From positions 620,001-684,000 of the forward strand of contig NZ_JAERQJ010000003.1 in the NCBI RefSeq assembly GCF_016735115.1: DNA of 64,000 bases, written 5' to 3'. The notes under the pieces were generated by a model that ran no database searches, was not told the DNA's origin, and saw nothing but the letters and a program-made list of their open reading frames with translations. Within the stretch, counting starts at the first letter, position 1; every line of letters begins with the position of its first letter. Made by a program: the position numbers and the translations under genes. Of the stretch, positions 33,715 to 61,552 are shown in pieces. Source of the stretch: Aquimarina mytili. GTDB taxonomy: Bacteria; Bacteroidota; Bacteroidia; Flavobacteriales; Flavobacteriaceae.

Positions 33715-33771
33715 TACTCAAGGTGGGAATCGAACCCACACTCCCGAAAGAACTGGATTTTGAATCCAGCG
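33715..33771 (-). pseudogene. 3' part of host tRNA-Leu(CAA), cut by the element
   Basis: Minus strand: anticodon arm with CAA, long variable arm 'TTCTTTCGGGAGT', complete T arm 'GTGGGTTCGATTCCCAC' and 3' acceptor strand CTTGAGT-A. The D arm and 5' acceptor strand are missing here; the sequence changes to element DNA at 33772. The missing 5' part is at 61514-61552, and the acceptor strands GCTCAAG (right) and CTTGAGT (left) pair. No promoter remains for this fragment. Confidence 0.92.
33758..33771. repeat. Left attachment core (14-bp direct repeat)
   Basis: TTTTGAATCCAGCG occurs here and at 61514-61527 in the same orientation. It covers the 5' anticodon stem and loop of tRNA-Leu (on the minus strand CGCTGGATTCAAAA). 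It marks the left border of the integrated element. Confidence 0.9.
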
Positions 33772-33882
33772 AATTATAAACATTAATAACTACAAACAAA
33801 CCTAAACATCTATTAAAGCACCATATATAGTAATTTACAAAGATCATTAGAGTTCATTAAAGTTCGCTTGAAACTCATAATT

Positions 33883-33901
33883 GTTTAACCTATGTTTAAC
33901 C
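33883..33901. repeat. Left terminal repeat, possible integrase arm site
   Basis: GTTTAACCTATGTTTAACC contains two GTTTAACC units 11 bp apart. A copy with one mismatch is at 61409-61427, same orientation, 101 bp inside the right border; this one is 112 bp inside the left border. Placement near both ends suggests binding sites for the integrase N-terminal domain. It also overlaps the integrase promoter, so autoregulation is possible. Confidence 0.7.
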
Positions 33902-33910
33902 CAAATTGTG

Positions 33911-33918
33911 TATATTTG
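33911..33918 (+). promoter_or_regulatory. Putative -7 box of the integrase gene
   Basis: TATATTTG fits TAnnTTTG, 19 bp before the preferred ATG at 33938 and next to the GTTTAACC repeats. Confidence 0.55.
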
Positions 33919-33937
33919 TAAAAAATATAGGCAATTT

Positions 33938-35152
33938 ATGGCATCGGTTAAAGCAATCCTTTATCGCAGTAAAAAGAAAGCAGATGGAACACATCCCATA
34001 GCATTACGCATCATCAAAGACAGGAAACCTGCCTATCTTTATCTTGATTGGATAGGCAATAAGTATTGGGATGACACAAAATCTAAAGTAAAAAGTTCTC
34101 ATCTAAGCCATAAAAGACTCAATAATCTTATCTTAAAGAAACTTACCCAAGCTGATGATCTTATCTTAGAATTTGAATCTAATAATAGATTTTACACAGG
34201 AGCATCTATACTAAAGCTCGTTAAGGGGAATCGAAAAAACATTTCCTTTTTTAAGTATGCAGAAGAATATATTGAAGAACTAGAGAAAACCAATAAACAC
34301 AGTAGAGCAAGCTCTGACAAAGCCAGGATAAAAAGAACTAAGGAATTTACAAATAACAGAGATATTGCCTTTCAAGAAATTGATCAAGCATTTCTTAAAA
34401 AGTTAAGAGTATTTCTTATTGCAAAACATCAGTCCTCAGAACGATCTGTTTTAAATACGTATGTAGTAATTAGAACTATATTTAATAAAGCAATCAGCGA
34501 AGGTATTGTAGATCAAAAGTACTACCCTTTTGGTAAAGGTAAAATTCAAATAAAATTTCCCCAAACTTTAAAAATTGGTTTAAGTGAAGATGAAATCACT
34601 GCTATAGAAAACCTCGAACTCAAAACTGGAACAACTATATGGCATAGTAGAAACATATTTCTTTTTTCGTTCTATTTGGCAGGTATGAGAATTTCTGATG
34701 TCTTAAAAATAAAATGGGAAGCTATTCAAAATGATCGACTCTACTATAAAATGAATAAAAACAGTAAGGCTGATTCTGTTAAATTGACTTCAAAAATTTT
34801 AAGTTTGTTATCTCACTATCAAAAGGACAAGCGATCCAATACTGATTTTATATTTCCTGAGTTAAAAAAGGCAAATCTTAAAGATTCAAAGGATGTCTAT
34901 AATAAAACCAAAACAGCCACAAAGAAGTTTAACAAATACCTTAATGAACTTGCCCAATTAGCAGAAATTGATAAAAAAATTACATGTCACATTGCTCGAC
35001 ATTCTTTCGGTAATATTGCCGGAGATAAAATATCTCCACAAATGTTACAGAAATTGTACCGCCATTCTAACCTGAGCACTACAATTGGTTATCAAGGTAA
35101 TTTTATTCATAAAAATGCAGATGAGGCTTTGGATAGTGTATTGAATTTTTGA
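33938..35152 (+). CDS. Tyrosine recombinase / integrase
   Basis: 404 residues from the ATG at 33938 ('ASVKAILYRSKKKADGTHPI' is the family start; an upstream TTG would add 19 residues). The N-terminal arm-binding region is of the Bacteroidota phage-integrase type. SAM-like core-binding domain at about 90-185; catalytic domain at about 200-400 with first Arg in 'AGMRISDVLKIKW', the box-II motif 'HIARHSFGN' (H-x-x-R), later 'YRHSNLSTTIGY' with the conserved His and the nucleophile Tyr. All catalytic residues appear intact. It lies 167 bp from attL and reads away from it. It should recombine at the CAA anticodon arm of tRNA-Leu. Confidence 0.93.
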   Translation: MASVKAILYRSKKKADGTHPIALRIIKDRKPAYLYLDWIGNKYWDDTKSKVKSSHLSHKRLNNLILKKLTQADDLILEFESNNRFYTGASILKLVKGNRKNISFFKYAEEYIEELEKTNKHSRASSDKARIKRTKEFTNNRDIAFQEIDQAFLKKLRVFLIAKHQSSERSVLNTYVVIRTIFNKAISEGIVDQKYYPFGKGKIQIKFPQTLKIGLSEDEITAIENLELKTGTTIWHSRNIFLFSFYLAGMRISDVLKIKWEAIQNDRLYYKMNKNSKADSVKLTSKILSLLSHYQKDKRSNTDFIFPELKKANLKDSKDVYNKTKTATKKFNKYLNELAQLAEIDKKITCHIARHSFGNIAGDKISPQMLQKLYRHSNLSTTIGYQGNFIHKNADEALDSVLNF

Positions 35153-35419
35153 ATGAAATCATGATATTGATAAGTGATAATATTTACAATTCCTGTATCA
35201 AGTCTTTCGAGAAAGAATGACAATATGATTAAGGTTGCAAAAGATAATAAAACAACTAATGATTATTTAAGATATTATAAAATTGATGATTGGTTGGTTT
35301 GTTGAAATAAAAAAGTCATTTATAATGAAAAACTACTGCAAAATAATAATGTAGCTGTTCTATTTTAGTGAAAATGAAGTTAAATAACCTATCTCCATAC
35401 TTCCATATTTTTATTATAG

Positions 35420-35592
35420 TTATTCTTTAATCCAACCTTTATATCCTGATATAACTTTATTGGTGGACATCATAGTAATTCCAATGATTTATCCTTTATC
35501 ATGGCAATATACTATTGAAATCGAATTGTTTGATTCAAGAATTTCTGTAAGCTCAACTTGTTGCTTGTTTGCACTTAACTACTTCAATAACA
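35420..35592 (-). pseudogene. Remnant of a GNAT acetyltransferase
   Basis: The minus strand reads 'LSANKQQVELTEILESNNSI' then 'SIVYCHDKG*IIGITMMST' then 'NKVISGYKGWIKE*'. This lines up with residues about 27-75 of the intact GNAT at 46919-47353 ('LSPNKKQLKLVEIL', 'ITIVYCIEQDKIVGIASM', 'YKVISGNKGWVED'). Stops at two places and loss of both ends show decay. The rest of the 35153-35638 gap holds nothing I recognise. Confidence 0.75.
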
Positions 35593-35638
35593 TGAAAAAT
35601 GATTGAATTTATATGGACCGTATTTAAAATATCCATTT

Positions 35639-36541
35639 TCATATTTTTTTCTTTTTTGAGCCATAAAATATGCCAATCAAAACCAAAACAATACCAACAA
35701 TATGATACCAAACGATGGTTTCGTCTAGAAGTAAAAATGATAAAATCACTGCACTAACAGGCATAATTCCTGTAAATAACCCTGCAATACTTGCCGATAC
35801 TTTTGAAACTCCATTAAACCAAAGGAAAAACGATATAACCGAGCCAAAAATCCCATAATAAAAAATAGGTAAAAAATCATGCATAGTGTAGTTCGCTACA
35901 GCAGTAAAGTCCACATCAATAAATGCAAATGGAACTGAAAAAAGTAAACCAATCCAAATAATATGAAAAGAACCATGGATTGCCGGTATTTGTTGAGTTT
36001 TCTTCCTGAAAATTGTAAATAACGCTTCACTAATTACTGCAAAAATGATCAACAAATTACCATAAACTCTTTGCGATTCTAACTGATCATTATTATGCAT
36101 ATCAGAAAATACATTAATCATACTAATACCCAACATTGCAAATATAATTCCGATCCACATATTCTTTGAAATCCTTTCTTTTAAAAAGAATAGCGCTATT
36201 AATGCAATAAAGGCTGGAGTTGTACTAGTAATAATACCTGCGTCTATTGAAGAAGTCATTTTAAGCCCGTAAAAACTCAACATCCTAAATAATACAACCC
36301 CTGTTATTGCTTGTGCAAATAAATATTTCCACTCTGATTTAGTGGGAACAACCTTCTGGTATTTATTTTTGATTATATATGCTGGAGTTATTCCTATAAA
36401 TGCTACAATTAAAGTAAGTGTGGTACCAAAAAATGTTGGAAATTTACCTACTATTAATTTACTTATCACAATAGTACTTCCCGCTATAGCCATAGCAAAA
36501 AACAATTGCATGTAAATAGACATTATATTTTTCTTATTCAT
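35639..36541 (-). CDS. EamA-family (DMT superfamily) transporter
   Basis: 300 residues with about ten transmembrane helices in two repeats of five, the EamA pattern ('GITPAYIIKNKY', 'AITGVVLFRMLSFYGLKMTS' and 'SSIDAGIITSTTPAFIALIA' in repeat 1; 'FFLWFNGVSKVSASIAGLF', 'TGIMPVSAVILSFLLLDETI' in repeat 2), and a basic C-terminal tail. Inner-membrane exporter of small metabolites or amino acids; the substrate cannot be told. Its ATG overlaps the stop of the 114-residue gene upstream by 8 bp, so the two are co-translated. Confidence 0.9.
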   Translation of the reverse strand: MNKKNIMSIYMQLFFAMAIAGSTIVISKLIVGKFPTFFGTTLTLIVAFIGITPAYIIKNKYQKVVPTKSEWKYLFAQAITGVVLFRMLSFYGLKMTSSIDAGIITSTTPAFIALIALFFLKERISKNMWIGIIFAMLGISMINVFSDMHNNDQLESQRVYGNLLIIFAVISEALFTIFRKKTQQIPAIHGSFHIIWIGLLFSVPFAFIDVDFTAVANYTMHDFLPIFYYGIFGSVISFFLWFNGVSKVSASIAGLFTGIMPVSAVILSFLLLDETIVWYHIVGIVLVLIGIFYGSKKKKI

Positions 36542-36878
36542 CTATTAGTTCTATATATTCTGATGTCCCACCTGTTTGATCTCCATTTAACCAGGTCCAA
36601 ACAAACCGTAATTGTAATTTCCCTGAACTATCTTTTGTAATAGTCCCCTTCGACTCTCCAGATTTTAATTCACCATTATCAGTAATACATTGAAATAACA
36701 ATTCAATAGTATTAGAACCAGTTTGTTTCCCAACAATTGTACCTTTAAAAATGGCTCCTCCTTTATAACTTCCGGTAATTATTTTATCATTTTGATAATA
36801 CCGAAAAATAGTTTCGTTAGAAGACAAGCCTTTGTTGTTTTCTATAGCGATAAATTTTTTGCTATTTAAATTAAACAC
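36534..36878 (-). CDS. Small beta-barrel protein of the family often labelled n-acetylglutamate synthase
   Basis: 114 residues. 'SSNETIFRYYQNDKIITGSY', 'KGGAIFKGTIVGKQTGSNTI', 'GESKGTITKDSSGKLQLRF', 'WTWLNGDQTGGTSEY' match a small cytoplasmic Bacteroidota/Firmicutes family that databases often label n-acetylglutamate synthase, a name without evidence of that activity. Strand pairs ending in W-x-W-x-x-G-D suggest a lipocalin-like barrel. It is translationally coupled to the EamA transporter. Confidence 0.75.
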   Translation of the reverse strand: MFNLNSKKFIAIENNKGLSSNETIFRYYQNDKIITGSYKGGAIFKGTIVGKQTGSNTIELLFQCITDNGELKSGESKGTITKDSSGKLQLRFVWTWLNGDQTGGTSEYIELIDE

Positions 36879-36957
36879 ATTCTAAGTTTTTGAGTTTACA
36901 ATCTTGTAGAGAAAATTTTTCATTTTTTTTATTGATGATATACTGCGCAATAACTGA

Positions 36958-37554
36958 TTATTTCCTCTTTTTTTTCACAAATATTAAATCTTCTTTAGTG
37001 ACTGTTAACTCAGGAGATAGTACTAGTACCTCTAGATTTCTTTTTTCCATTTGACTATGTTTTTTTAATCCACGAGTAACTACATCAGTCATTTTTTCTT
37101 TCAATTCTTCCAATTCATTTTCATCAAATGATATTGGTTCTCTTTTAGATATAAGCTTTTGTATTCTTTTTAATCTATACTTATATTTTTTTCTATACTT
37201 ATTTATATCAACAGGAATTAATTTTACCGCAGCTTTAATACCTCCTATTTGAGGAATTACATCAATAAGATAAATTTTACCCGCCTCTAAATTGGCTTCA
37301 ACAAATGATTTATTTTCTGATCTAGCCCAAAATAGATGTTCTCCTGGACTACACTCATACTTCATATACTTGTAGCCATTAAACCTTCCGATTGGTTTTT
37401 CTCCATCAAAATAAGTGAAGTTAATTAAAGCTCCTAATGTACTTGCTCTAGTAAAGTATACAATAGTTTTCTCTTCGGAAGGAGAGTCAACACTCTGTGA
37501 AAATGTTAATAAGCTTTGAAAGAATATTATAATTAAGCAAAATTTTATTTTCAT
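36958..37554 (-). CDS. Exported DUF2846-like protein
   Basis: 198 residues with a signal peptide ('IKFCLIIIFFQSLLTFSQ'). 'IVYFTRASTLGALINFTYF', 'GEKPIGRFNGYKYMKYECSP', 'GEHLFWARSENKSFVEANLE', 'AGKIYLIDV' follow the DUF2846 layout (surface or periplasmic beta-sandwich, P/S-G-x-H/Y-x-F/L turn). A Lys-rich helical tail follows. 46 bp downstream of the beta-barrel gene at 37601-38284, hence probably under the same promoter. Function unknown. Confidence 0.7.
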   Translation of the reverse strand: MKIKFCLIIIFFQSLLTFSQSVDSPSEEKTIVYFTRASTLGALINFTYFDGEKPIGRFNGYKYMKYECSPGEHLFWARSENKSFVEANLEAGKIYLIDVIPQIGGIKAAVKLIPVDINKYRKKYKYRLKRIQKLISKREPISFDENELEELKEKMTDVVTRGLKKHSQMEKRNLEVLVLSPELTVTKEDLIFVKKKRK

Positions 37555-37600
37555 TTTTTAATGATTTTAGTTTTGAACGTTTTTATATATGAATTATTGG

Positions 37601-38284
37601 CTATCTAAAAGTGTAATTAAACCCAAGATACAAATCAATACCACTTCCCTTTAGGGTATCAAAATCAAAAGTTCCGATTATCTCTTTTATATCATAGCTA
37701 ATACCATAATATTTCAATCCCATTAATACCCCAAATCCTTTCGGTCCTATATATTCGTATTCTGTCAGAAGGTGAATTCCTGACGTATTATCATAATCTA
37801 AAGTTCCGTTTAGACCAACTTCGGCAGCATCGAACTTTAAGGTGCCACCAGTATAGGACCCATAGCCAATCCCAAGATTAAGAGTTTGATCTCTTTGCGG
37901 ATTGATTCCTATTAAATATTTGAAAGTAGGCTGAAAAATATATCGTTTAAATCTAACCGAAGCATTCTCCAGTGAAGGCCTTAAATGACTGGATTGATAT
38001 CCGAACCCCATTCCTATACTGTAGGTTTTATTAAAAATATATTCTCCTAAAAGAGCAACATGCCATCCGCCACCGCCACTTATACTAGATATTCCAGTAT
38101 CTACAAATTCATTGTTGTTATTAAATTGAACAAAATCAATAACATCAATATTTTTAAACCCTAAACCGAAGCCTGTTTGAAAACCTATTTTAAAATAATT
38201 TTCTTTTGAAGAGCTACTCTGATCTTGCTGACCATGAGCAATTGAGTAAAGAACCATTGCTAATAACCAAAGTGCATTTTTCAT
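37601..38284 (-). CDS. Outer-membrane beta-barrel-like protein
   Basis: 227 residues with a signal peptide ending 'AHGQQ'. Amphipathic strands with aromatic girdle residues and glycine turns: 'FKIGFQTGFGLGFKNIDV', 'WHVALLGEYIFNKTYSIGMG', 'QPTFKYLIGINPQRDQTLN', 'LGIGYGSYTGG', ending in 'GIDLYLGFNYTFR', a typical terminal strand with final aromatic-x-aromatic/Arg. About ten strands. Function unknown; small OmpA/OmpW-like barrels are the closest idea. The upstream region carries the TCAC-N8-GTGA dyad (38343-38358) and a perfect -7 box. Confidence 0.75.
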   Translation of the reverse strand: MKNALWLLAMVLYSIAHGQQDQSSSSKENYFKIGFQTGFGLGFKNIDVIDFVQFNNNNEFVDTGISSISGGGGWHVALLGEYIFNKTYSIGMGFGYQSSHLRPSLENASVRFKRYIFQPTFKYLIGINPQRDQTLNLGIGYGSYTGGTLKFDAAEVGLNGTLDYDNTSGIHLLTEYEYIGPKGFGVLMGLKYYGISYDIKEIIGTFDFDTLKGSGIDLYLGFNYTFR

Positions 38285-38312
38285 TATAATTCCTTAATTT
38301 TTTGTTTCGGAA

Positions 38313-38358
38313 CAAATGTATTTTTGAAAAGATAATTGAAGCTCACTGTTTTTGGTGA
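38313..38358 (-). promoter_or_regulatory. Promoter with 16-bp dyad, for 38284 leftward genes
   Basis: On the minus strand TCACCAAAAACAGTGA (38343-38358) is followed after exactly 22 nt by TACATTTG (38313-38320), a perfect TAnnTTTG. The ATG is 28 bp further. Identical dyads are at 45003-45018 and 47556-47571. A dyad centred about 42 bp before the expected start site fits a class II activator. Confidence 0.75.
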
Positions 38359-38459
38359 TTTTGGTTGAAGCCAAAGTTTTAATAGTAATGATTCAACTAT
38401 CCTATAGTATCATCACGCTACAAGATGGTAGAATTTAGCATAGATTTAAAAACTCAAAA

Positions 38460-41048
38460 TCAATGAAATAAGGCTATTTTTTTTGAATAGCTTTCTTTGT
38501 TTGCTGTGATTTTTAAAATATAAAAGCCATCGGTTAAACCAGTAATATCAATTGGAATTTCTTTCACTTCTTGATCTAAGTCTTTTTCAAATACCAGTTT
38601 TCCGGTAAAGGTGTACAACTTTAAATTCACTTTTTTGACAGTATTAATTTTGATAAACAAAGTACCATTTGTTGGAATAGGATATATCGTATTTGCTATT
38701 TCTTCGGGAACTGGTTTATCTTCTTCCAGTACTGTGTCATTATCATTACCAATTTCATCATCATTATCTACTTCATCGTCATCATTATCATCGTTATCAG
38801 GTATGGTATCATCTACTTTTCTTGGTAAAATAGCCCATTTTGGATTCCCTTCTGTAGAGGAAAGCACCTTACTTTGAATCCATGTCCAAGCATCTCCCCC
38901 ACCAGGTAAATCTGCTATCATAGCCATTGCTCCTAGGGCGTAATGTGGATAAGAATCAGACCCCCAGTTTATTGTTGTATTAAAACGATCTTCTATATTA
39001 AAATCACTTAGATATGCATCTTGTGCACTTAACCAATCCTGAAAAAATTCGCCATTCTGATTTTGTACAGGAGCACTATATGCGGCAATTAGGTGAGGAT
39101 TATACCCTGATGTGGTCATTTGTTCAATCATATAAGGAGCAAACCATTCACGAATTCCTTCAACGGCATACCCAATTTCTTGAGCTTGCCCGATAGCAAA
39201 TAAGAGAAATGCATGTTCCCAAGGCGCCGTTCCTGTAGAAACTTTAGCCACATCTAATGGCTCTCTTGCTCTAGCATTTGTTCCCTTATTCCAGTGTCTT
39301 AATAGTGATGGTTCATGAGGTTTCGCAACAGTATTACCCCAGTTCCACATGGGATCACTCTGATGAGAGCTCCCCGTTACATTGCGTTGTCCTTCCCACA
39401 ATGCAATTGCATCGTTTATCAAATCGGTATACAATTTTTTTTCAGGACTTTGATCAGGACTTAACAATGCTGTTCGGGTACGATTTCTAAAAACCCAGGC
39501 ATCGCCTCTTATCTGCCCCTGAATTCCTCCGTAAGCACCTGTAAGTCCCCTACCCCATGGTGCTATAGGAGCTTCATGCAAGGAGTGATAAGAAGCCCAA
39601 AAATATAATTCTTCTAAATAAAAGTAATCTCCACTTAGCATATATTGTACAGAGAAGGGATCAGGTGTATGTGCAGCATCTGGAACCCAAGGTTGATAAT
39701 CTGATGCATCAGGATCGTAAGCATCAGAAGCCCAGTCTCCAACAATATTTACAAAATCAATTGCTTTAGTTCCAACAGAGGTATTGTTTGTATAGTACGT
39801 GCCATTTAGCATTAATGTAGGCCTTCCAATGACAGATATTGGTTTCCCTACGGCTTTAGTAGTTTTATCTCTGTCAAAATAGCGCGTTACCGCCCCACGG
39901 CTTATACTTCCTTCACGAAAATGCACGGGCCATGCTGCAGCAAGATCAGCATGCCCATAAGCTACATCTGTTGCTTTTCTATTCCAGGTAAAAAACCAAT
40001 CTGACGTAATAGTTGGATATGGGCCTATCTCCATTCTACCTCCTGTTGTGGGCATAGCTCTTTGCCAAATAGCATGATCATAAATATCATTAGAAGATAA
40101 CCATGTATTGTAATTACTAGTAATTCGATTATTATCTATGGTTTTTGTCACATCGTAGTTCGGTAAATATTTAGTTTTAATTAAATATTCTAAATTATGA
40201 TTTATAATGATATCAGAAGGTTGGCCATTAATCCAATATTTTTTGGTCCAACGAGATCCTACATACATCTTTAAAGGTGACTTGGTTATGGGGAGATCAT
40301 ATTGAATGGTTGGGCTTGTTGCTCCCGTTTTCAATATAATATCACTAACTACTACATCCTGAAGCGATTCGGTATTAGACACTTCTCCTATAAAACGTAT
40401 CATAACCTTATGAATCCTTGGCCAGAATGTAGCCTGAAAAATTGGCCGAAAAGATCGATGCTCATCAAACCCAATATCATATTTACTTACAGCATGCCCT
40501 AATGAAGTTTCCTGATTCGAATGATCAGCTATTATAACCGTAGTAGCGATTGGCCCTTGAGTCCAATAAACATAATCATCATTTTGTAACATTTGCCTTG
40601 CAGAAGCATTGACAGTTGATCCATTAGTAAGCTCTATGATTGCATCAAAGTCATAAGAAGAGTCTAACATTTCCTGTTTAGCTAAAGAAGTATTGTTGCC
40701 AGAAGCCTGATTTTGAAATGCTACGAATACCGATGTATTCGCTTCAAGAACAGGGATCAAAAATGAGATAATAGCGAATTTGACACTACCGTCATTATAT
40801 CTGTTTTTAACGTCTGCTTGGGTTAATATTGTAACATCGCCAATAACTACCTGAGGGTAATCTACAATTTCTCCTTTTATAAAAGGCCTGCCTATTTGAA
40901 TTGGATAATTATTTGTGGTAACATTATTAATTTCGGTAATGATTAATTCATTATCCTGATTTTGGATTGAAATAGTGTTTTCTGAAGCTATAGCATCATA
41001 AAAAATAAATAATGAAAATGATAGGAGAACGAGATGAATAAGTTTCAT
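38460..41048 (-). CDS. T9SS-exported protein with exo-polysaccharide-lyase-like architecture
   Basis: 862 residues. Signal peptide ('LIHLVLLSFSLFIFYDAIA'). Residues about 40-260 are a beta-rich domain opening with 'PIQIGRPFIKGEI' and 'NRYNDGSVKFAIISF', similar to the first domain of PcRGLX/YetA-type rhamnogalacturonan lyase-like proteins (W/Y-x-DGS-V-K/R). About 280-740 are a helical toroid-like region ('YFWASYHSLHEAPIAPWGRG', 'RGDAWVFRNRTRTALLSP'). An Asp/Asn-rich linker (about 757-785) precedes a type A T9SS sorting domain ('IYPIPTNGTLFIKI', 'DGFYILKITANKESYSKKIA'). So it is secreted across the outer membrane and surface-attached or released. The substrate is not deducible. The acidic linker may bind calcium. 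Confidence 0.7.
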   Translation of the reverse strand: MKLIHLVLLSFSLFIFYDAIASENTISIQNQDNELIITEINNVTTNNYPIQIGRPFIKGEIVDYPQVVIGDVTILTQADVKNRYNDGSVKFAIISFLIPVLEANTSVFVAFQNQASGNNTSLAKQEMLDSSYDFDAIIELTNGSTVNASARQMLQNDDYVYWTQGPIATTVIIADHSNQETSLGHAVSKYDIGFDEHRSFRPIFQATFWPRIHKVMIRFIGEVSNTESLQDVVVSDIILKTGATSPTIQYDLPITKSPLKMYVGSRWTKKYWINGQPSDIIINHNLEYLIKTKYLPNYDVTKTIDNNRITSNYNTWLSSNDIYDHAIWQRAMPTTGGRMEIGPYPTITSDWFFTWNRKATDVAYGHADLAAAWPVHFREGSISRGAVTRYFDRDKTTKAVGKPISVIGRPTLMLNGTYYTNNTSVGTKAIDFVNIVGDWASDAYDPDASDYQPWVPDAAHTPDPFSVQYMLSGDYFYLEELYFWASYHSLHEAPIAPWGRGLTGAYGGIQGQIRGDAWVFRNRTRTALLSPDQSPEKKLYTDLINDAIALWEGQRNVTGSSHQSDPMWNWGNTVAKPHEPSLLRHWNKGTNARAREPLDVAKVSTGTAPWEHAFLLFAIGQAQEIGYAVEGIREWFAPYMIEQMTTSGYNPHLIAAYSAPVQNQNGEFFQDWLSAQDAYLSDFNIEDRFNTTINWGSDSYPHYALGAMAMIADLPGGGDAWTWIQSKVLSSTEGNPKWAILPRKVDDTIPDNDDNDDDEVDNDDEIGNDNDTVLEEDKPVPEEIANTIYPIPTNGTLFIKINTVKKVNLKLYTFTGKLVFEKDLDQEVKEIPIDITGLTDGFYILKITANKESYSKKIALFH

Positions 41049-41085
41049 AAGACAAGTTGGATTTATGATTAGCCTAATATGTGTT

Positions 41086-41102
41086 TTTCGAATCCTTCGA
41101 AA
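41086..41102. promoter_or_regulatory. Dyad between divergent genes
   Basis: TTTCGAATCCTTCGAAA is a 7-bp inverted repeat with a 3-nt centre, in the 189-bp region between the leftward T9SS gene (ATG 41048) and the rightward sensor kinase (ATG 41238). It is a candidate operator. Confidence 0.4.
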
Positions 41103-41237
41103 TTAACAACCACCACAAATCTTACCGTTTATGACAATATTATAGTAACGTTTATTAGTGAAATTGAATTATAACCCTTTTAAGTGATGTTTCTGGGGAA
41201 AAAAAATTGCTTTCTTTGTGAAAATACTAATAGACCC

Positions 41238-43142: not shown

Positions 43143-43198
43143 AAGTAAATAAAAATCGCTCAATGACTTTTTTGTTTTTTCGGAAGGCCTTCTACATT

Positions 43199-44008: not shown

Positions 44009-44169
44009 AAAGCGTTTTTTTTAATGTTAATAATATCTTTTTTTGATAGTTAATTAAAAGTCTTTATAAAACAATTTCATTTCAAAAAGGCTAGTAATAA
44101 TGTAATCGAATTCTTTATTAAGTATAGTTTACTTTTTTGTAAAGTTTCATCAATAGTTATAAAAAAAAC

Positions 44170-44241: not shown

Positions 44242-44282
44242 CATTAAGATTTCAATAACCGGCATTAAATTGCTTCATAGCT

Positions 44283-44924: not shown

Positions 44925-45002
44925 CCCAACAATATTTTCTTCAAAATATCAACTGCTTTAGATATCTTTTTTTTAATCCCTGGAAGCAGTGAAGTCCTAA
45001 TT

Positions 45003-45048: not shown

Positions 45049-45089
45049 ATGCATACAAACTTTGAATTATTAATTAAAACTCAAATATT

Positions 45090-45296: not shown

Positions 45297-45308
45297 AACT
45301 AATTTGAA

Positions 45309-51099: not shown

Positions 51100-51320
51100 T
51101 TCGTGTAATTCCCTTGTTTTAGTACGTCTTCGATTCTAAAATTGTTTTTTGCCTTTATGAAAAATATACTTTTACGAATAGATTGCAAATGCATTAGTTG
51201 TGTCGACTATAAACAAAATATATTATATAGAACAATTACTAAATGTAATTTTTCAGACATAGGAAATCATATTTGTAAATCAGTTTTTCAATGAATTATT
51301 AATAAAAAAACAAAAACTTT

Positions 51321-51863: not shown

Positions 51864-51941
51864 AAAGGTAAAGTATTTATACCATTCTAATTCGAGAAAT
51901 GGATGTCTTTAACCTTATTTAGATTATTAAACAACTTCTTA

Positions 51942-53327: not shown

Positions 53328-53435
53328 GGATAACATTATTTTCATTGATCAAAACGGAAAGTAGAGGCAGTATACTTCAATAATCATAAAGTCTTGCTCT
53401 AAAAACACCTAATAACCTGTATCTAATATAATAAT

Positions 53436-53481
53436 ATCACCGAAAACCATGAATTATTTGTAATCAGTATCGGTTATTTTT
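53436..53481 (+). promoter_or_regulatory. Promoter with TCAC-type dyad, for the LRR lipoprotein
   Basis: TCACCGAAAACCATGA (53436-53451; 3 mismatches from TCACCAAAAACAGTGA), then exactly 22 nt, then TATTTTTG (53474-53481), a perfect TAnnTTTG. ATG 48 bp further. Confidence 0.6.
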
Positions 53482-53528
53482 GCGTCCAAACACATTGGAA
53501 TTCATTAAACCCCAAAAAACAAAAAAAG

Positions 53529-54659: not shown

Positions 54660-54661
54660 AT

Positions 54662-54707
54662 TATAAACCCCTCTTAGGTGTATTGATACACCTAAGAGGG
54701 GTTTATA
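54662..54707. terminator. Strong rho-independent terminator
   Basis: A perfect 21-bp stem (54662-54682 with 54687-54707) around the 4-nt loop TTGA, starting 3 bp after the LRR lipoprotein stop. Followed by AAAAAA on the plus strand and with A/T-rich ends on both sides; the best hairpin in the window. Confidence 0.85.
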
Positions 54708-54806
54708 AAAAATAACATTCATTATTTCTACCATATTTTATAAAAAAACAATTAACTTTTCATTCTCATCAGATCTTTTACACATATAGTACATAACTAA
54801 CCTGCA

Positions 54807-55697
54807 ATGAAAAGTACATTTTGGATAATCGGCATTGTTATTTCTATTTTTCTAATTCTTATCGTAATAATAATCATAAGTATCGTTAGACCATTGATTA
54901 ACACTTCAGAAATCTCTCAAGAGAAAATCAAGTCAATGACAACATACAAGCTTCTTTCAGATGGGGTACAAATTGAGGAGGTTCCTAATGAAATGGAAAT
55001 ATTACCTCTTGATTTTCGTCCTGAAAAAGCAGATTTAAATGCTGGGGCACGTTTGTTGGTGCAAGAAGATGGAAGTTTAGAAAAATTTGAGTTATACACG
55101 AATAACGATCCTGGTAAAGAAATTGACGCCCTTATCGATGATACTCTTGAGTATAACCTTGCTTTTAAGAATAGTAAAGTGTATCAAATTACTCAAGATA
55201 AAATAGACACTCTAGTCCATAAATTTGAAGCCCCCACTTTTGAGCCATTTAGATACTTTGCAATTATTACTAAAGATTATTTTTTAATGAATGCAGATCT
55301 TAAAGAAGTAAACTATGCAAAACCAATATTATGGCAGGTACATAAAACAACATTTGAAACCTTAAAGATTTCAGAAGAACCATATTATACTTCAGAAAGG
55401 CCTCCTTTGATTATAAAACCAGAGAGATATACAGGTACAATAGTTGTATATTATGTAGGGGATATTTCTTTTGGTTATGGTGGAGATTCATCTCGACCAG
55501 AACAGAGTATTATACGTATTTATGATCAAAAAAATCCGCAAGGAAAAGACTTAATCCAACTATCATTTGCTGCTGGTACTATCGTCGATATCGAAATGGA
55601 CAATGCCGATTTTTTGGTGTATACCGATTCTAGTTTACCTTCTAGTGTTGGTAAGCCGAGAGTTGCACCAAAAACCTGGCGAATTTCTATAAATTAA
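54807..55697 (+). CDS. Membrane-anchored protein of unknown function
   Basis: 296 residues. One N-terminal transmembrane helix ('TFWIIGIVISIFLILIVIII'), the rest is extracytoplasmic: 'TGTIVVYYVGDISFGYGGDS', 'IVDIEMDNADFLVYTDSSLP'. No family recognised. The following lipoprotein gene starts about 6 bp after the stop, so they form a pair. Confidence 0.65.
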   Translation: MKSTFWIIGIVISIFLILIVIIIISIVRPLINTSEISQEKIKSMTTYKLLSDGVQIEEVPNEMEILPLDFRPEKADLNAGARLLVQEDGSLEKFELYTNNDPGKEIDALIDDTLEYNLAFKNSKVYQITQDKIDTLVHKFEAPTFEPFRYFAIITKDYFLMNADLKEVNYAKPILWQVHKTTFETLKISEEPYYTSERPPLIIKPERYTGTIVVYYVGDISFGYGGDSSRPEQSIIRIYDQKNPQGKDLIQLSFAAGTIVDIEMDNADFLVYTDSSLPSSVGKPRVAPKTWRISIN

Positions 55698-55702
55698 TAT
55701 GA

Positions 55703-56320
55703 ATGAAGCCTAGAAGTTTTTATATCTCTATACTAACCATATGCATTGTAGCGGTTTTTTCGGGTTGCTATTCACCTAAAAATAGATCGAATTCTAAACT
55801 ATCAAAAAGTTTTACTAGAGATACGATTCAAGTTGGTTATACCTACTGGTGGCCACATTCTGGACCCTTTATCGGAATATGTGGAGATCGATATGCTTTA
55901 GTATTTACTGGGGAAATAAATAAGATTAATAAGCCCAAAAAAGAGTCTCACTTATTAGTCTCATCTCACAAAATGATTATTGAAATTGAAGAAATATTAA
56001 CCGTTCGAAATTTAGAAAAAAATAAATACCAACAACAACAATTACTCTCTTCTAATTGTTGTGAAAACTTAGACCTGGAAGAAGGTGATAACGTGATTGT
56101 TTTTTGCTACGAATATAGTGGAGGATATAGTATTCCTGGTCAAAACTCTATATTGAAGATTGAAGATTCTAATACTGCCATTGTTAAATCTATAAAAAAA
56201 TACATCAAAGCCGATCAGAACCCTTTGGTCTTAAAAGATGATATCGTATTATGGAAACAATACGGATTTGAAAAAGATCTCACTAGGATCATTGCATGCA
56301 AACAAGAAATAAAGAAATAG
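55703..56320 (+). CDS. Putative lipoprotein of unknown function
   Basis: 205 residues. Signal with lipobox 'AVFSGCYSP'. The body starts with 'TYWWPHSGPFIGICGDRYAL' and has a 'SSNCCENLDLEEGDNVIVF' segment with adjacent Cys-Cys, which could form a disulfide in the periplasm. The fold may be a small beta barrel of NfeD/OB type, but I cannot assign it. Paired with the upstream membrane protein. Confidence 0.65.
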   Translation: MKPRSFYISILTICIVAVFSGCYSPKNRSNSKLSKSFTRDTIQVGYTYWWPHSGPFIGICGDRYALVFTGEINKINKPKKESHLLVSSHKMIIEIEEILTVRNLEKNKYQQQQLLSSNCCENLDLEEGDNVIVFCYEYSGGYSIPGQNSILKIEDSNTAIVKSIKKYIKADQNPLVLKDDIVLWKQYGFEKDLTRIIACKQEIKK

Positions 56321-56333
56321 CTTTAAAAAGTTA

Positions 56334-56789
56334 TTACTCTAACCAATAATCAACATAAATTTTAGGCATTAAGTTATCTGGTAACTCTGCATCTGGATCC
56401 AACCCAATGATTTTGCCAGTAATTCGAATAAGTTCTTCAAAAGTTTTACGATAATCCGTAATAGCCTGTTTGTCCTCAATCGCCCCCGAAGTTGAGGCTC
56501 TATACCTTTTGGCACAAGAGGCAAGATGCATCTCCAAATCTTCGATGACCTTATATCGAAGACTAAGATATTTTTCTGGAAGAAGATTTTCATCTATTTC
56601 ATTGTCTTTTCCTAATGCATAACACCATCCATTAAGCATTAAATCGTTTAACTTCTGTAGGTATTCTTTAATTAATTTCCGTTTTTCAGGATCTCCGGTT
56701 CTTTCAACTAGTTTTGATAAAACTACCAATTCTCTTATGCTGTCGTCATAATTATTTACCATCGTATTATTCTCCATGAATCCTCGCAT
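56334..56789 (-). CDS. Small helical cytoplasmic protein, unknown
   Basis: 151 residues, no signal. Mostly helices: 'DSIRELVVLSKLVERTGDPE', 'KRKLIKEYLQKLNDLMLNGW', 'LSLRYKVIEDLEMHLASCAK', 'DYRKTFEELIRITGKIIGLD'. Not recognised. The start may be at the second or third Met (residue 5 or 10). Convergent with the lipoprotein gene at 55703, 13 bp between stops. Confidence 0.55.
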   Translation of the reverse strand: MRGFMENNTMVNNYDDSIRELVVLSKLVERTGDPEKRKLIKEYLQKLNDLMLNGWCYALGKDNEIDENLLPEKYLSLRYKVIEDLEMHLASCAKRYRASTSGAIEDKQAITDYRKTFEELIRITGKIIGLDPDAELPDNLMPKIYVDYWLE

Positions 56790-56830
56790 GACTCACTTGA
56801 TATTTTTAACTACTGTGTTATTACATTTTA

Positions 56831-57436
56831 TTAAAATTCAATGATTCCATCCAAAAGATCATACCCTTCTTTTGGCGTATCATTTTCTATACTTTCCCAA
56901 TTGAATTTAGGATATCTTCCTTTGAGTTTCTCAATATCTTTTGAATAATTGTCTGTCCATTTAAGAGTAAACCCATTTGTATTTCCTTTGGGATAAAATG
57001 TCAAATCTCCAATATAAGTTATGGTTCCTTCTTTAAGAGTAAATGGAACAGAAAAATGATTTTTCGGACTATAATACTCTTGATAAAATCCATAATTCGA
57101 AAACAGGCTATAGCTCCAAAATTCATAATCTCCTGGGATATGTTCTAAAGCAAATTGGAATACCATTCTACTTCCAATTTGGTAGTCTGGTTTTAAAACT
57201 CTTAAAAGCCCTCCTTGATTAGGTTTAATATTAATCCTATGTCCTTTTTGGACATTTTTCTTACGGTAAAAAAAATTGTATGAGTTATATACTGGGCTCT
57301 CATCTATAATTGTTATTGTTCCCACCATCAGTCCATTTTTACTGTTTGAGCTAAAAGAGTCTGGCGCAAGTCTCGAGGGGTTTGCAGCGCACCCTATTAG
57401 TATCACACAATTAATTAGAATTAAAATCTTTCTCAT
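56831..57436 (-). CDS. Putative lipoprotein of unknown function
   Basis: 201 residues. Lipobox 'CVILIGCAANP'. Beta-rich body ('LMVGTITIIDESPVYNSYNF', 'IPGDYEFWSYSLFSNYGF', 'EGTITYIGDLTFYPKGNTN') with the 'PGDYEFW' turn also seen in DUF2846-like proteins, so it may be a distant relative of the protein at 36958-37554. A TCAC-N8-GTGA dyad lies upstream (57554-57569). Confidence 0.65.
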   Translation of the reverse strand: MRKILILINCVILIGCAANPSRLAPDSFSSNSKNGLMVGTITIIDESPVYNSYNFFYRKKNVQKGHRINIKPNQGGLLRVLKPDYQIGSRMVFQFALEHIPGDYEFWSYSLFSNYGFYQEYYSPKNHFSVPFTLKEGTITYIGDLTFYPKGNTNGFTLKWTDNYSKDIEKLKGRYPKFNWESIENDTPKEGYDLLDGIIEF

Positions 57437-58489: not shown

Positions 58490-59956
58490 ATGCATACTAC
58501 AGAAACAATTGGAGTAGATGATTTTCTGGAAGAAACAGAAAAACTTCTTGAAGTAGCTCATAATAACAAGGAAATCCAAAGGGACAGTCAAGCAAAATTA
58601 GTGTTAGAAAAGTTGTTAGAATTTATCGATGAAATTGACTTTAGAGCGTACACCAAAATTCAGGGAGATGCTAAATTAAAAAAGAACCACTTTTTGGTTT
58701 CCATTATCGAAATTCTAATCCAAACTGCTCATGATAATGGTTTTAGTTTATGTCGTAAGTACGACCTGGTATATGTATACAATAGCCAATACTGGCAAGT
58801 TATAGAACGAAATGAATTTGAATATTTTCTTGGTCAAGTAGCTCAAAAAATGCAAATGGATCGTTTTACGGCAAAATTTCACGCATTTAAAAGCGAATTG
58901 TATAAACAATTTTTGGCAGATGCTAGGTTAGAAGAAATCACATCGTATCATAAAACTACTTTGATTAATTTAGCTAATGGAACCTTTGAAATTTCACCCT
59001 TCCTGCAAGCTTTACGACCGTATCAAAAAGAAGACTTCTTAACCTATTATTTACCCTTTACTTTTGATGAAAAAGCTATTGCTCCTCAATTTCAAAAATA
59101 CATCGATCGGGTACTCCCTGAGGACGAATTGCAAGATGTTTTAGCAGAATACCTAGGGTATATTTTTATCAAAAATAATGTTTTGAAACTCGAGAAGGTA
59201 TTACTTGCTTATGGAACTGGTGCTAATGGTAAAAGTGTTTTATTCGAAATCATTATGGCTTTATTAGGTCGGGAAAACATTACTAATTATTCACTACAAT
59301 CACTTACCTCCGAAAATGGCTACTACAGGGCAATGCTTTCCAACAAGCTACTAAATTATGCCAGTGAGATCAATGGAAAACTTGAAACCAATATTTTTAA
59401 ACTATTAACTTCTGGAGAACCTGTAGAGGCAAGATTACCCTTTGGGCAGCCACATCTTATCTCTAATTATGCTCGATTTATGTTTAACTGTAATGAGCTT
59501 CCTGAAAAAGTAGAGAACAACAATGCCTTCTTCAGGCGGTTTTTGATTATTCCTTTTCGGGTAACCATCCCTAGAGCAGAACAAGATCCGGATTTAGCAA
59601 AACGAATTATTAGAAGTGAATTGTCAGGAGTCTTTAATTGGATGTTAATGGGCTTGAATAGATTATTGAAAAATCGTGATTTCACCTCTAGTAAGATCAT
59701 ACAAAATGAAGTATTGCAATATCAAAGAGAAAGTGATACGGTATTATTGTTTCTGGACGATGTAGGATACCAAACCTCAATTACTATGGATACTCCGTTT
59801 TCTAATGTATTTAGTGAGTATAGAATCTTTTGTATCGAAAGTAATTACAAGTTAGAATCTAAAAAAGCATTTTCACAACGGCTAAAAAAATTAGGCTACC
59901 TGATTAAACGTAAAAGTTATGGCCAAGCCATTTTTATAGAAAAAAAAGTATTTTAA
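58490..59956 (+). CDS. P4/D5-type primase-helicase (SF3 helicase)
   Basis: 488 residues. C-terminal half is an SF3 helicase as in phage P4 alpha and poxvirus D5 families: D5_N-like 'YIDRVLPEDELQDVLAEYLG', Walker A 'GTGANGKS' near 243, 'LLNYASEING' as Walker B, 'ARFMFNCNELPE' as motif C, 'FFRRFLIIPF' with the arginine finger. The N-terminal half has no recognisable catalytic AEP primase motif. It should unwind the excised circular element for replication. Translationally close to the HTH gene; the downstream primase-like protein may supply primer synthesis. Confidence 0.9.
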   Translation: MHTTETIGVDDFLEETEKLLEVAHNNKEIQRDSQAKLVLEKLLEFIDEIDFRAYTKIQGDAKLKKNHFLVSIIEILIQTAHDNGFSLCRKYDLVYVYNSQYWQVIERNEFEYFLGQVAQKMQMDRFTAKFHAFKSELYKQFLADARLEEITSYHKTTLINLANGTFEISPFLQALRPYQKEDFLTYYLPFTFDEKAIAPQFQKYIDRVLPEDELQDVLAEYLGYIFIKNNVLKLEKVLLAYGTGANGKSVLFEIIMALLGRENITNYSLQSLTSENGYYRAMLSNKLLNYASEINGKLETNIFKLLTSGEPVEARLPFGQPHLISNYARFMFNCNELPEKVENNNAFFRRFLIIPFRVTIPRAEQDPDLAKRIIRSELSGVFNWMLMGLNRLLKNRDFTSSKIIQNEVLQYQRESDTVLLFLDDVGYQTSITMDTPFSNVFSEYRIFCIESNYKLESKKAFSQRLKKLGYLIKRKSYGQAIFIEKKVF

Positions 59957-59958
59957 AA

Positions 59959-60046: not shown

Positions 60047-60973
60047 TTGAACTATAGATATACACTACAATCATATTCAGGTATAAAATCTCGATTTCGA
60101 TGTCCTAACTGTCATAAAACAAACAAGTTTTCTCGTTACATAGACACCGAAACCAATGAATATATACATGAAATCGTAGGTAGGTGTAATCGAGAAATCA
60201 AATGCGGATATCACTATACGCCTAAACAGTATTTTGGAGATCATCACTTTGAGGTAATCCCAAAAAGAACCAAAATCATTGTATCCAATATAAAAGAAAA
60301 TCCCACAAGCACTATTCAAAAAGCTATTCTCACCCAAAGCTTAAAAAAAGATGCTCCTAATAACTTTCTTGAATATCTAGGTGCAATTTTCGATACTGAA
60401 ACTGTAAACAAATTGAAAACAAAATATCATATAGGAACTTCTAAGAAATGGAAAGGAGCCACAGTATTCTGGCAAATGGATTGTGAAGGAAAAATACGAA
60501 GTGGTAAGGTTATGCTATACAATGTAAACACTGGTAAACGTATCAAAAAACCATACCATCATATCACTTGGGTGCATCGTATTATGAAAATTTCTAATTA
60601 TACTCTAAAGCAGTGCTTTTTTGGAGAGCATTTATTGAAGGCAACAACTAATCCCATTGCTATAGTAGAAAGTGAGAAAACAGCAATTATCGCTAGTGTT
60701 TTTTTACCAGAATTTACCTGGATAGCTTCAGGCAGTCTATCAAATCTGAATCATGAAAAAACTAAAATACTCAAAGATCGTCAAGTGATATTATTCCCTG
60801 ATTTGGGCGGTTATGATAAGTGGAAAGAAAAGATTCTTAAACTATGTCCTGATGCAGATTATCAAATTTCTGATTTATTAGAACGAAAAGCTAGTGATAA
60901 GCAGCGCGAGTTAGGTTTGGATGTCGCTGATTATTTGTTAGCTCTGGAGCTAGAGAAATATGTAAACAATTAG
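60047..60973 (+). CDS. Zn-ribbon/Toprim primase-like protein (DUF6371-type)
   Basis: 308 residues if started from the TTG at 60047. N-terminal zinc beta-ribbon: 'FRCPNCHKTNKFSRYID' and 'GRCNREIKCGYHYTPKQYFG' (four Cys). The middle 'FWQMDCEGKIRSGKVMLYN' and the C-terminal 'PIAIVESEKTAIIAS' (Toprim Glu) and 'VILFPDLGGYDKWKEK' (Toprim acidic residues) complete a DnaG-like layout known from Bacteroidota elements (PG0870/DUF6371 group). Would make primers or assist the D5 helicase. Ends just before inverted ATGTAAAC repeats. Confidence 0.82.
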   Translation: MNYRYTLQSYSGIKSRFRCPNCHKTNKFSRYIDTETNEYIHEIVGRCNREIKCGYHYTPKQYFGDHHFEVIPKRTKIIVSNIKENPTSTIQKAILTQSLKKDAPNNFLEYLGAIFDTETVNKLKTKYHIGTSKKWKGATVFWQMDCEGKIRSGKVMLYNVNTGKRIKKPYHHITWVHRIMKISNYTLKQCFFGEHLLKATTNPIAIVESEKTAIIASVFLPEFTWIASGSLSNLNHEKTKILKDRQVILFPDLGGYDKWKEKILKLCPDADYQISDLLERKASDKQRELGLDVADYLLALELEKYVNN

Positions 60974-61079
60974 TGTTTACATGCATCCTATTTTTAATAA
61001 TTTTTACGTTTACCTATGGAATAATTGCGGTGATTACCACTGTCAAACGGTTTTAAGTGTTTACATTAAATATGTAAAC
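60960..61079. repeat. Two ATGTAAAC / GTTTACAT dyads
   Basis: ATGTAAAC-N7-GTTTACAT at 60960-60982 (overlapping the primase stop) and GTTTACAT-N5-ATGTAAAC at 61059-61079. Opposite arm order, 98 bp apart. Possible operator or replication terminator pair in the 342-bp gap to the tRNA. Confidence 0.55.
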
Positions 61080-61267
61080 ATTATTCAGTCTATTTTCTAC
61101 TTTATTTTGTTTGTAGCAGTCAATATTTGAAGGCGTAGAAAGGTTTGTTCCGAGATTTATTCAAACAAAACTCTTAGTGCTTTAACATATCTTATAAATA
61201 TATTTTTGACTTATAACTTTGTCAAATTCTAAATCAGGATATGCTCCTTTTCATTTAAATAAAATTA

Positions 61268-61309
61268 AACAAAAAACCTCAATCCAATAACTAAAAGGAT
61301 TGAGGTTTT
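61268..61309 (-). terminator. Terminator of the element's tRNA-Leu
   Basis: AAAACCTCAATCC (plus strand 61273-61285) pairs perfectly with GGATTGAGGTTTT (61297-61309), 11-nt loop; on the minus strand it is followed by TTTTTTG. 7 bp after the tRNA 3' end. Confidence 0.85.
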
Positions 61310-61315
61310 TATCTG

Positions 61316-61397
61316 TACTCGAGGTGGGAATCGAACCCACACTCCCGAAAGAACCGGATTTTGAATCCGGCGCGTCTACCAATTCCGCCACTCGAGC
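61316..61397 (-). tRNA. tRNA-Leu (CAA), carried by the element
   Basis: 82 nt, minus strand. Acceptor GCTCGAG with CTCGAGT (one G-U at the end) and A73; D arm 'GGCGGAATTGGTAGACGC'; anticodon stem CCGGA/TCCGG with loop TTCAAAA (anticodon CAA); variable arm 'TTCTTTCGGGAGT'; T arm 'GTGGGTTCGATTCCCAC'. CCA not encoded. Compared with the split host gene it has two compensated base-pair changes (acceptor C-G for T-A type, anticodon-stem C-G for T-A type), which supports function of both versions. It lies inside the element and can be transcribed from the former host tRNA promoter 180 bp upstream. Confidence 0.95.
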
Positions 61398-61408
61398 ATG
61401 TGCTGTAT

Positions 61409-61427
61409 GTTTAACCTATATTTAACC
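61409..61427. repeat. Right terminal repeat, possible integrase arm site
   Basis: GTTTAACCTATATTTAACC, one mismatch from the left copy at 33883-33901; a further partial unit GTGTTTAACTT follows at 61433-61443. Confidence 0.68.
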
Positions 61428-61513
61428 TCGAAGTGTTTAACTTCTTCTTTTGAAAATACAACTATTTTATTATCAGCTAACTAAAATAGATTTTTAATTC
61501 TAAACGCGTAAAC

Positions 61514-61527
61514 TTTTGAATCCAGCG
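61514..61527. repeat. Right attachment core (14-bp direct repeat)
   Basis: TTTTGAATCCAGCG, identical to 33758-33771. The carried tRNA has a one-base variant (TTTTGAATCCGGCG) at the same place. Confidence 0.9.
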
Positions 61528-61552
61528 CGTCTACCAATTCCGCCACTTGAGC
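61514..61552 (-). pseudogene. 5' part of host tRNA-Leu(CAA), cut by the element
   Basis: Minus strand: 5' acceptor strand GCTCAAG, D arm 'GGCGGAATTGGTAGACGC', 5' anticodon stem CTGGA and loop TTCAAAA; then element DNA. Joined with 33715-33757 it gives an 82-nt tRNA with perfect stems (GCTCAAG/CTTGAGT; CTGGA/TCCAG). It still has the original promoter. Confidence 0.92.

What the first reader, a model, noticed from the sequence alone, without database searches (positions are those of the whole stretch)
33715..61552. A mobile element splits tRNA-Leu(CAA) in the anticodon arm and brings its own replacement tRNA
Seen directly: the 3' part of a tRNA-Leu at 33715-33771 and the 5' part at 61514-61552 share a 14-bp repeat, and joined at it give an 82-nt tRNA with perfect acceptor and anticodon stems. 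Between them lie an integrase and replication genes, and, 119 bp inside the right border, an intact tRNA-Leu(CAA) with two compensated base-pair differences. Most tRNA-targeting elements restore the 3' end of the gene on integration; this one destroys it and supplies a whole foreign copy, placed so the former host tRNA promoter can read it. The carried copy differs by one base in the 14-bp core, which may protect it from its own integrase. If CAA is otherwise unique in the genome, the element would be addictive.
Basis: partly seen in the sequence, partly recalled or inferred. Interest (0 to 1): 0.85.

Follow-up and report, generated by a model that had tools for sequence, protein, structure and literature searches.

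The report
Mobile elements that replace split tRNAs
A mobile DNA element in a marine flavobacterium cuts a leucine tRNA gene in two where it inserts and supplies a complete substitute tRNA beside the old promoter; the same arrangement recurs in many related bacteria and resembles a trick previously described in phages.

Summary
A 27.8-kb tyrosine-integrase element splits the only tRNA-Leu(CAA) gene found in an Aquimarina-group genome at its anticodon arm and carries an intact tRNA-Leu(CAA) 116 bp from the prs-side core. The joined halves equal a congener's intact gene (85 of 85 nt); in the 30 best congener loci one CAA gene lies beside prs. It recurs: a pattern scan of 84,980 species gave 45 stretches, 30 genuine by eye, mostly Flavobacteriaceae; related integrases do the same at tRNA-Leu(UAG). 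Host halves pair in 34 of 34 elements tested, and one carried sequence follows host halves with three different acceptor stems. Carried tRNAs have a rewritten anticodon stem (0 of 19 distinct sequences core-like, against 33 of 37 natural ones). Spacers of 18-35 bp in 40 of 43 elements leave little room for a promoter, so the host tRNA promoter probably drives the substitute. The principle is known as tRNA-dependent lysogeny (actinophages, 2024). New here: apparently non-phage elements, Bacteroidota, the tRNA built into the attachment region, the recoded stem, wide spread. 'Addiction' is weaker than proposed (excision should rejoin the host gene), and single-pair 'immunity' is doubtful. Nothing was tested at the bench.

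The parts
33713..33771 (-). 3' part of the split host tRNA-Leu(CAA), including the 14-bp core
61514..61552 (-). 5' part of the split host tRNA-Leu(CAA), beside prs, including the 14-bp core
33758..33771 (-). core repeat, left junction
61514..61527 (-). core repeat, right junction
61315..61397 (-). carried intact tRNA-Leu(CAA)
61271..61305 (-). terminator-like hairpin and T-run after the carried tRNA
   Evidence: read by eye
33882..33901 (-). paired repeat GGTTAAACATAGGTTAAACA on the integrase side, probably arm-type integrase sites (role inferred)
61408..61427 (-). paired repeat GGTTAAATATAGGTTAAACA between core and carried tRNA, probably arm-type sites (role inferred); a further half-site starts at 61434
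33938..35152 (+). tyrosine integrase, 404 aa
58255..58488 (+). 77-aa ORF with a weak DUF4248 match, below the Pfam cut-off
58490..59956 (+). D5_N/DUF5906 primase-helicase
60047..60973 (+). DUF6371 protein with zinc ribbon
35639..57436 (.). cargo: EamA transporter, TPR-histidine kinase, LuxR-type regulator, AraC-type regulator, C11 peptidase, GNAT acetyltransferase and others
61574..61581 (-). TAATTTTG, a TAnnTTTG promoter-like element of the host tRNA gene (consensus recalled)
61709..62650 (+). gene read as prs (name by recall), conserved neighbour that marks the native tRNA locus

Best explanation
[quoted passage not shown] The core is too short to rebuild the gene, so integration splits it (shown by comparison with empty sites). 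The attP region also carries a complete tRNA-Leu of the same anticodon with its own terminator-like hairpin, and integration puts this copy directly downstream of the host tRNA promoter and 5' remnant (shown as anatomy). The host promoter is then read through the dead 5' half into the substitute, and RNase P frees it (inferred). Excision would rejoin the host gene, so one working tRNA exists in either state (inferred). Carrying a whole tRNA instead of a 3' half lets one element use hosts whose acceptor stems differ (supported by comparison, with one result against). The rewritten anticodon stem probably keeps the carried copy from recombining with, or being confused with, the core beside it (inferred).
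For: Sites without this layout: the 30 best congener loci each have one CAA gene beside prs; 28 have no arm-type repeat within 500 bp after the tRNA, two (G028, G002) do and hold conventional relatives. Recurrence: 30 of 45 pattern hits are genuine split-plus-carried borders, classified by eye. Linkage: in 27 of 30 fetched integrase loci a tRNA 3' part lies beside the integrase, the core 157-173 bp from it for CAA, UAA and fMet and 240-251 bp for replaced UAG (166 bp in the window); integrases of six genomes are identical over the aligned part. Halves: acceptor strands pair 7 of 7 in 34 of 34 elements, against a mean of 14.8 and maximum of 25 in 20,000 shuffles. Second isoacceptor: eight UAG borders. 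Host range: a 3'-half-only element would give at least one mispair in 36 of 41 cases, while in the 8 conventional relatives of which I read both sequences the displaced and restored acceptor strands agree in 8. Promoter: TAnnTTTG within 60 bp upstream of the 5' half in 38 of 46 loci (2.8 expected), in the spacer in 2 of 46. Stem recoding; in G094 the carried UAG tRNA differs from the joined host gene at four bases, all in the anticodon stem.
Against: No expression, excision or circular-form data. The host-range argument predicts variable acceptors at replaced targets and fixed ones at conventional targets: fMet fits (chance that two genomes differ 0.29, against 0.73 for CAA and 0.74 for UAG), but Leu(UAA) is equally variable (0.73) while the two UAA elements seen look conventional. 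Conventional CAA and UAG elements also exist, in acceptor-matched hosts. In the window clade (window, G006, G239) the carried tRNA lies beyond the arm-type repeats with a 116-119-bp gap where a promoter could hide, and G239 has a TAnnTTTG in its spacer. Eight of 46 loci lack TAnnTTTG upstream (G239, G066, G071, G076, G090, one fossil, G098 and G070 at UAG).
Confidence: 0.87

Rival explanations
1. The intact tRNA is a host paralogue (tandem gene) and a conventional element merely broke its neighbour.
For: Tandem tRNA-Leu genes exist in some congeners (G042 and G054, CAA plus UAA).
Against: The intact copy lies between the halves, inside the element; each of the 30 best congener loci has a single CAA gene; one carried sequence is identical in ten genomes, nine of them with a host half, of three acceptor types.
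Confidence: 0.03
2. It is an addiction device: the element persists because losing it costs the cell a needed tRNA.
For: The carried CAA copy is the only one found here. In seven of the eight tabulated UAG genomes the carried copy is the only hit over at least 70 query positions (G066 has a second). In G070/L112 the 5' half has a 22-nt insert, so excision could not restore a normal gene.
Against: Both junctions in the window keep complete cores and flanking repeats, so excision should rebuild the host gene; UUG may be read by tRNA-Leu(UAA) wobble (recalled).
Confidence: 0.2
3. The recoded anticodon stem blocks the element's own integrase from attacking the carried tRNA.
For: 0 of 19 distinct carried sequences are core-like, against 33 of 37 distinct natural ones; Fisher p 1.5e-6 (CAA) and 1.4e-4 (UAG), with no correction for relatedness. 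G094 differs from its host gene in the stem alone.
Against: Host tRNAs with CCGGA (G052, G057) or TCGGA (G239) stems were integrated into. Copies that do recombine would collapse into a conventional-looking gene and escape this survey, so the contrast may be survivorship.
Confidence: 0.45
4. The stem is recoded so that the transcript of the dead 5' half does not pair with the carried tRNA's 3' half and misfold it.
For: Both would lie on one transcript, 18-35 or 116-119 nt apart.
Against: Not tested; D-arm and often acceptor sequences stay similar.
Confidence: 0.25

Closest known systems
tRNA-dependent lysogeny of actinophages (Fionnbharth, Gaia and others; Guerrero-Bustamante and Hatfull, mBio 2024, PMC10865867)
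   Same: Tyrosine integrase; attB overlapping a host tRNA gene; short core (8-17 bp in the rows of their table that lack reconstruction) that does not rebuild the gene; element-borne tRNA of the same isotype; related integrases that do rebuild (Omega against Gaia, both at tRNA-Leu-CAA).
   Different: Theirs are temperate phages; the Fionnbharth tRNA overlaps gene 37 elsewhere in the phage genome and has a demonstrated promoter. Here no phage structural genes were seen among the proteins scanned, the tRNA sits 18-119 bp from the core and mostly lacks an evident promoter, the stem is recoded throughout, and hosts are Bacteroidota.
Conventional tRNA-targeting islands (Islander database, PMC4383910)
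   Same: Tyrosine integrase, anticodon-loop crossover, displaced 3' fragment.
   Different: There attP holds the tRNA fragment that restores the gene; here it does not. Relatives in this integrase family do restore (G028, G002, G049, own UAA element).
Prophage-related sequences of Sinorhizobium meliloti (PMC11476347)
   Same: Authors report an inactivated tRNA gene replaced by an element-borne isoacceptor gene of foreign origin (one discussion passage read).
   Different: Phage-related sequences in Alphaproteobacteria; layout not compared here.
NBU1 of Bacteroides (one passage in PMC10865867; primary paper not read)
   Same: Bacteroidota mobile element using a leucine tRNA gene.
   Different: Core at the 3' end of the tRNA, not the anticodon loop.

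Membership tests
tRNA-dependent lysogeny | tyrosine integrase acting at an attB that overlaps a tRNA gene | tested here: met
   Pfam; split gene and intact genes at the same locus in congeners
tRNA-dependent lysogeny | short common core, tRNA not rebuilt at either junction | tested here: met
   14 bp, no intact tRNA at either junction
[quoted passage not shown]
   tRNA-Leu(CAA)
tRNA-dependent lysogeny | disrupted tRNA is single-copy | tested here: met
   (draft genome)
tRNA-dependent lysogeny | disrupted tRNA is essential and the carried one is required to establish integration | not testable with these tools
   needs genetics
tRNA-dependent lysogeny | the element is a temperate phage | tested here: not met
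   Among 8 element proteins only integrase and primase matched PHROGs; no phage structural family in Pfam among the element proteins scanned (two in 69); no relative of the integrase in 50,697 phage records at E 1e-30, none by a close-relative scan of viral contigs. Not every ORF was scanned, so the negative is not complete; filed as 'works like', not member.
Conventional tRNA-restoring genomic island | attP holds the tRNA part that restores the target | tested here: not met
   The two junctions share only 14 bp
Phage_integrase (PF00589) with Arm-DNA-bind_5 and Phage_int_SAM_5 | profile match above curated cut-off | tested here: met
   65.0, 50.5 and 71.7 bits
ICE or IME | relaxase or conjugation genes | tested here: inconclusive
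   None among the element proteins scanned with Pfam (two in 69); not all ORFs were scanned

The most novel reading that the evidence does not exclude
A widespread class of apparently non-phage integrative elements in Flavobacteriaceae uses a promoter-trapping attachment cassette: core, whole recoded tRNA-Leu, terminator and arm sites. It swaps the host's tRNA for a portable one, freeing the element from host tRNA sequence, and sometimes leaves the portable tRNA behind for good, so that core tRNA genes are replaced by mobile ones (five fossil-like loci beside prs with no related integrase found in their genomes).
Probability: 0.55. Interest if true: 0.72.

Novelty: new variant of a known kind. 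Interest (0 to 1): 0.62.

Why it matters
The 2024 paper on tRNA-dependent lysogeny asks how common the phenomenon is outside actinophages. It gives natural replicates for asking why an element carries a whole tRNA: the same carried sequence in hosts with different acceptor stems, and sister elements that rebuild instead. Island-mapping methods that rely on a rebuilt tRNA plus a fragment could misread such elements, and tRNA genes used as stable markers may themselves be mobile.

Tried and rejected
Phage or plasmid origin: no relative of the integrase in viral contigs (a scan that reaches close relatives only), plasmids at E 1e-60 or phages at E 1e-30; the short-spacer border pattern was absent from viral contigs. 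So attP could not be read from a free circle.

Acceptor-variability test: only partly met; Leu(UAA) goes against it.

Pattern hits set aside by eye (15 of 45): L110, L114, L121, L149 and L120 (first motif not a tRNA half), L131 (only part of a 5' half, other phylum), L139 (contig ends inside the second tRNA), L134, L137, L147 (core not preceded by a tRNA half), and five fossil-like loci L109, L118, L124, L140, L141 counted apart. The table had 50 inputs: one gave no tRNA (G091), one was a duplicate (G096b), 43 are elements and 5 fossils. The pairing test used 34 of the 43; left out were CAA elements of G032, G050, G071, G077, G080, G086, G088, G096 and L144, for which I had no clean 3' half. 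In draft genomes some pairs lie on different contigs and were matched as the halves of one genome; in G067, with two CAA elements, one pair shares a contig and the other is the remainder. One search used 46 loci, fossils included (one too short, one without a 5' half).

The fossil loci have core-type (four) or near-core (one) stems, which the recoding rule would not predict for fresh carried copies; left unexplained.

RNA folding of the two alleles gave similar non-cloverleaf minima and says nothing useful.

Papers: PMC10865867 abstract and sections 6, 10, 11 read, plus found passages; PMC4383910, PMC8371274, PMC10872708, PMC5495485, PMC11389934, PMC6764341, PMC11476347, PMC12429752 passages only; Williams 2002 not held. 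In the listings of ten literature searches (two of them showed only part of the papers found) I saw no title or abstract start reporting this in Bacteroidota; that is not proof that none exists.
Full report
WHAT IS THERE. Beside prs, on the other strand, is the 5' part of a tRNA-Leu(CAA) (61552-61514). The gene breaks off in the anticodon arm, and its 3' part appears 27.8 kb away (33771-33713) beside a tyrosine integrase. The halves share a 14-bp core. Inside the right border, 116 bp from the core, is an intact tRNA-Leu(CAA) with its own terminator-like hairpin. Paired repeats (GGTTAAACATAGGTTAAACA-like), probably arm-type integrase sites, flank the core on both sides.

SITES WITHOUT IT. The joined halves match an intact congener gene at 85 of 85. 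In the 30 best-scoring congener loci, each with up to 1.5 kb of flank, there is exactly one CAA gene and prs lies beside it in 30 of 30. In 28 of them no arm-type repeat follows within 500 bp; the other two (G028, G002) hold conventional relatives. The carried copy is the only intact CAA gene found in the window's own genome: 45 tRNA matches over the cut-off, typed or read.

IT RECURS. A scan of named genomes for the layout with a short spacer gave 45 stretches; by eye 30 are genuine, five of them the same genomes as in the genus search, the rest in Galbibacter, Maribacter, Leeuwenhoekiella, Tenacibaculum, Salinimicrobium, Gillisia, Gramella, Winogradskyella, Tamlana, Cellulophaga and others; two are labelled Cytophagaceae. 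This scan could only find CAA or UAA anticodon loops, one D-arm sequence and spacers of 20-50 bases. A search of 36 of those genomes, set-aside loci included, found a related integrase (E at most 1e-70) in 26. Of the 30 integrase loci taken from it, 27 have a tRNA 3' part beside the integrase; in L166 the core and in L167 part of it is followed by non-tRNA sequence, and in L172 a rearranged copy follows. The core lies 157-173 bp from the integrase start for CAA, UAA and fMet targets and 240-251 bp for replaced UAG targets. G239, of another genus, has the window's own type of element: integrase 66% identical, gap 118 bp.

A SECOND TARGET. Related integrases that use tRNA-Leu(UAG) also split the host gene and carry a complete tRNA-Leu(UAG): eight 5' borders, and four more among 30 extracted loci of a family sample drawn without regard to this feature. 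Others in the family rebuild conventionally: CAA in G028, G002 and G049; UAG in G157, G325, G389 and G084; UAA in this same genome (C23:278576-322447) and probably G101; fMet in this genome and probably in four others, whose intact genes I did not fetch. In the integrase tree (49 rows; midpoint root, for drawing only) the window's clade mixes replacing and rebuilding elements, so the mode has changed at least once. G057 is ambiguous.

TESTS. Host halves: acceptor strands of the halves pair at 7 of 7 positions (G-U allowed) in 34 of 34 elements; shuffling partners within an isoacceptor gives a mean of 14.8 and never more than 25 in 20,000. The 3' strands were copied by hand, and some halves lie on different contigs of one draft genome. 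Element against host: one carried sequence is identical in ten genomes, whose host halves have GCTCGAG, GCCTTGG or GCCTCGG stems (nine; the tenth has no host half). Had the element supplied only a 3' half, 36 of 41 cases would have at least one acceptor mispair; in the 8 conventional relatives of which I read both sequences, displaced and restored acceptor strands agree in 8. Variability of targets in a family sample: chance that two genomes differ is 0.73 (CAA), 0.74 (UAG), 0.73 (UAA), 0.29 (fMet); UAA goes against the idea that variability alone decides the mode. Promoter: TAnnTTTG (recalled Bacteroidota consensus) lies within 60 bp upstream of the 5' half in 38 of 46 loci, 2.8 expected from mononucleotide shuffles, and in the spacer in 2 of 46, G239 and G077. 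Spacers measure 18-35 bp in 40 of 43 elements and 116-119 bp in three (window, G006, G239). Stems: none of 19 distinct carried sequences has the core's anticodon stem; 33 of 37 distinct parsed natural sequences do (two natural CAA loci could not be parsed; relatedness not corrected for). In G094 the carried UAG tRNA differs from its joined host gene at four bases, all in the anticodon stem, making two exchanged pairs.

HOW IT LIKELY WORKS. Shown: splitting, carriage, recurrence, linkage to one integrase family. Inferred: transcription from the host promoter through the dead 5' half, release of the substitute, and rejoining of the host gene on excision. The recoded stem may prevent recombination with the core next door, or RNA mispairing with the dead half, or may be survivorship (copies able to recombine would collapse into a conventional-looking gene). 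Against strict immunity, host genes with CCGGA (G052, G057) and TCGGA (G239) stems were used as targets.

FOSSIL-LIKE LOCI. Beside prs in five genomes (L109, L118, L124, L140, L141) a decayed 5' half precedes an intact tRNA-Leu, and no related integrase was found in those genomes at E 1e-70. They may be places where the portable tRNA stayed and the element left, but their stems are core-type or near it, which I cannot explain. In L112 the element is present and the 5' half is already disrupted by a 22-nt palindromic insert.

COMPARED WITH WHAT IS KNOWN. The principle is tRNA-dependent lysogeny (PMC10865867). Its authors write that further work is needed to learn its prevalence outside actinophages and name a Lactobacillus prophage; Sinorhizobium prophage-related sequences are another case. 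The present elements share the principle, but the phage feature was tested and not met as far as the scans reach, so I file them as a variant that works like it. Tycheposons were considered from passages in PMC10872708 only; their tRNA layout could not be compared.

Noticed in passing
window 9718-33496: Extracellular contractile injection system cluster left of the element: sheath, tube, CIS_tube, baseplate OB domain, AAA ATPase, Pvc16_N and an eCIS_core protein. The Pvc16_N gene was not found in the fetched flanks of congener tRNA loci.
   Followed up: partly
own genome C1:456550-552413: tRNA-fMet followed by arm-type repeats, and four displaced fMet 3' fragments downstream, suggesting stacked elements.
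   Followed up: no
own genome C23:278576-322447: A second element with a 61% identical integrase at tRNA-Leu(UAA), apparently rebuilding the gene conventionally.
   Followed up: partly
L109, L112, L118, L124, L140, L141: Palindromic inserts (CTGCCTGCCGGCAGGCAG-like) at the same D-loop position, after GGTAGAC, of dead tRNA-Leu 5' halves in six genomes; several have further palindromes elsewhere in the half.
   Followed up: no
L131 (Bacteriovoracaceae): A partial tRNA-Leu 5' piece with core just upstream of an intact tRNA-Leu(CAA), outside Bacteroidota.
   Followed up: no
own genome C12:89382-91018: Array of low-scoring, unusual tRNAs, including an odd tRNA-Leu(UAG).
   Followed up: no
window 45430-45768: Small protein with a GG-type leader-like stretch among sensor kinase and regulator genes; no Pfam match; a bacteriocin-like reading is recalled only.
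   Followed up: no
L123, L126: Possibly a third cassette type, with a paired CCTAAAACA-like repeat in L123 and a single one in L126; no related integrase at E 1e-70 in either genome.
   Followed up: no
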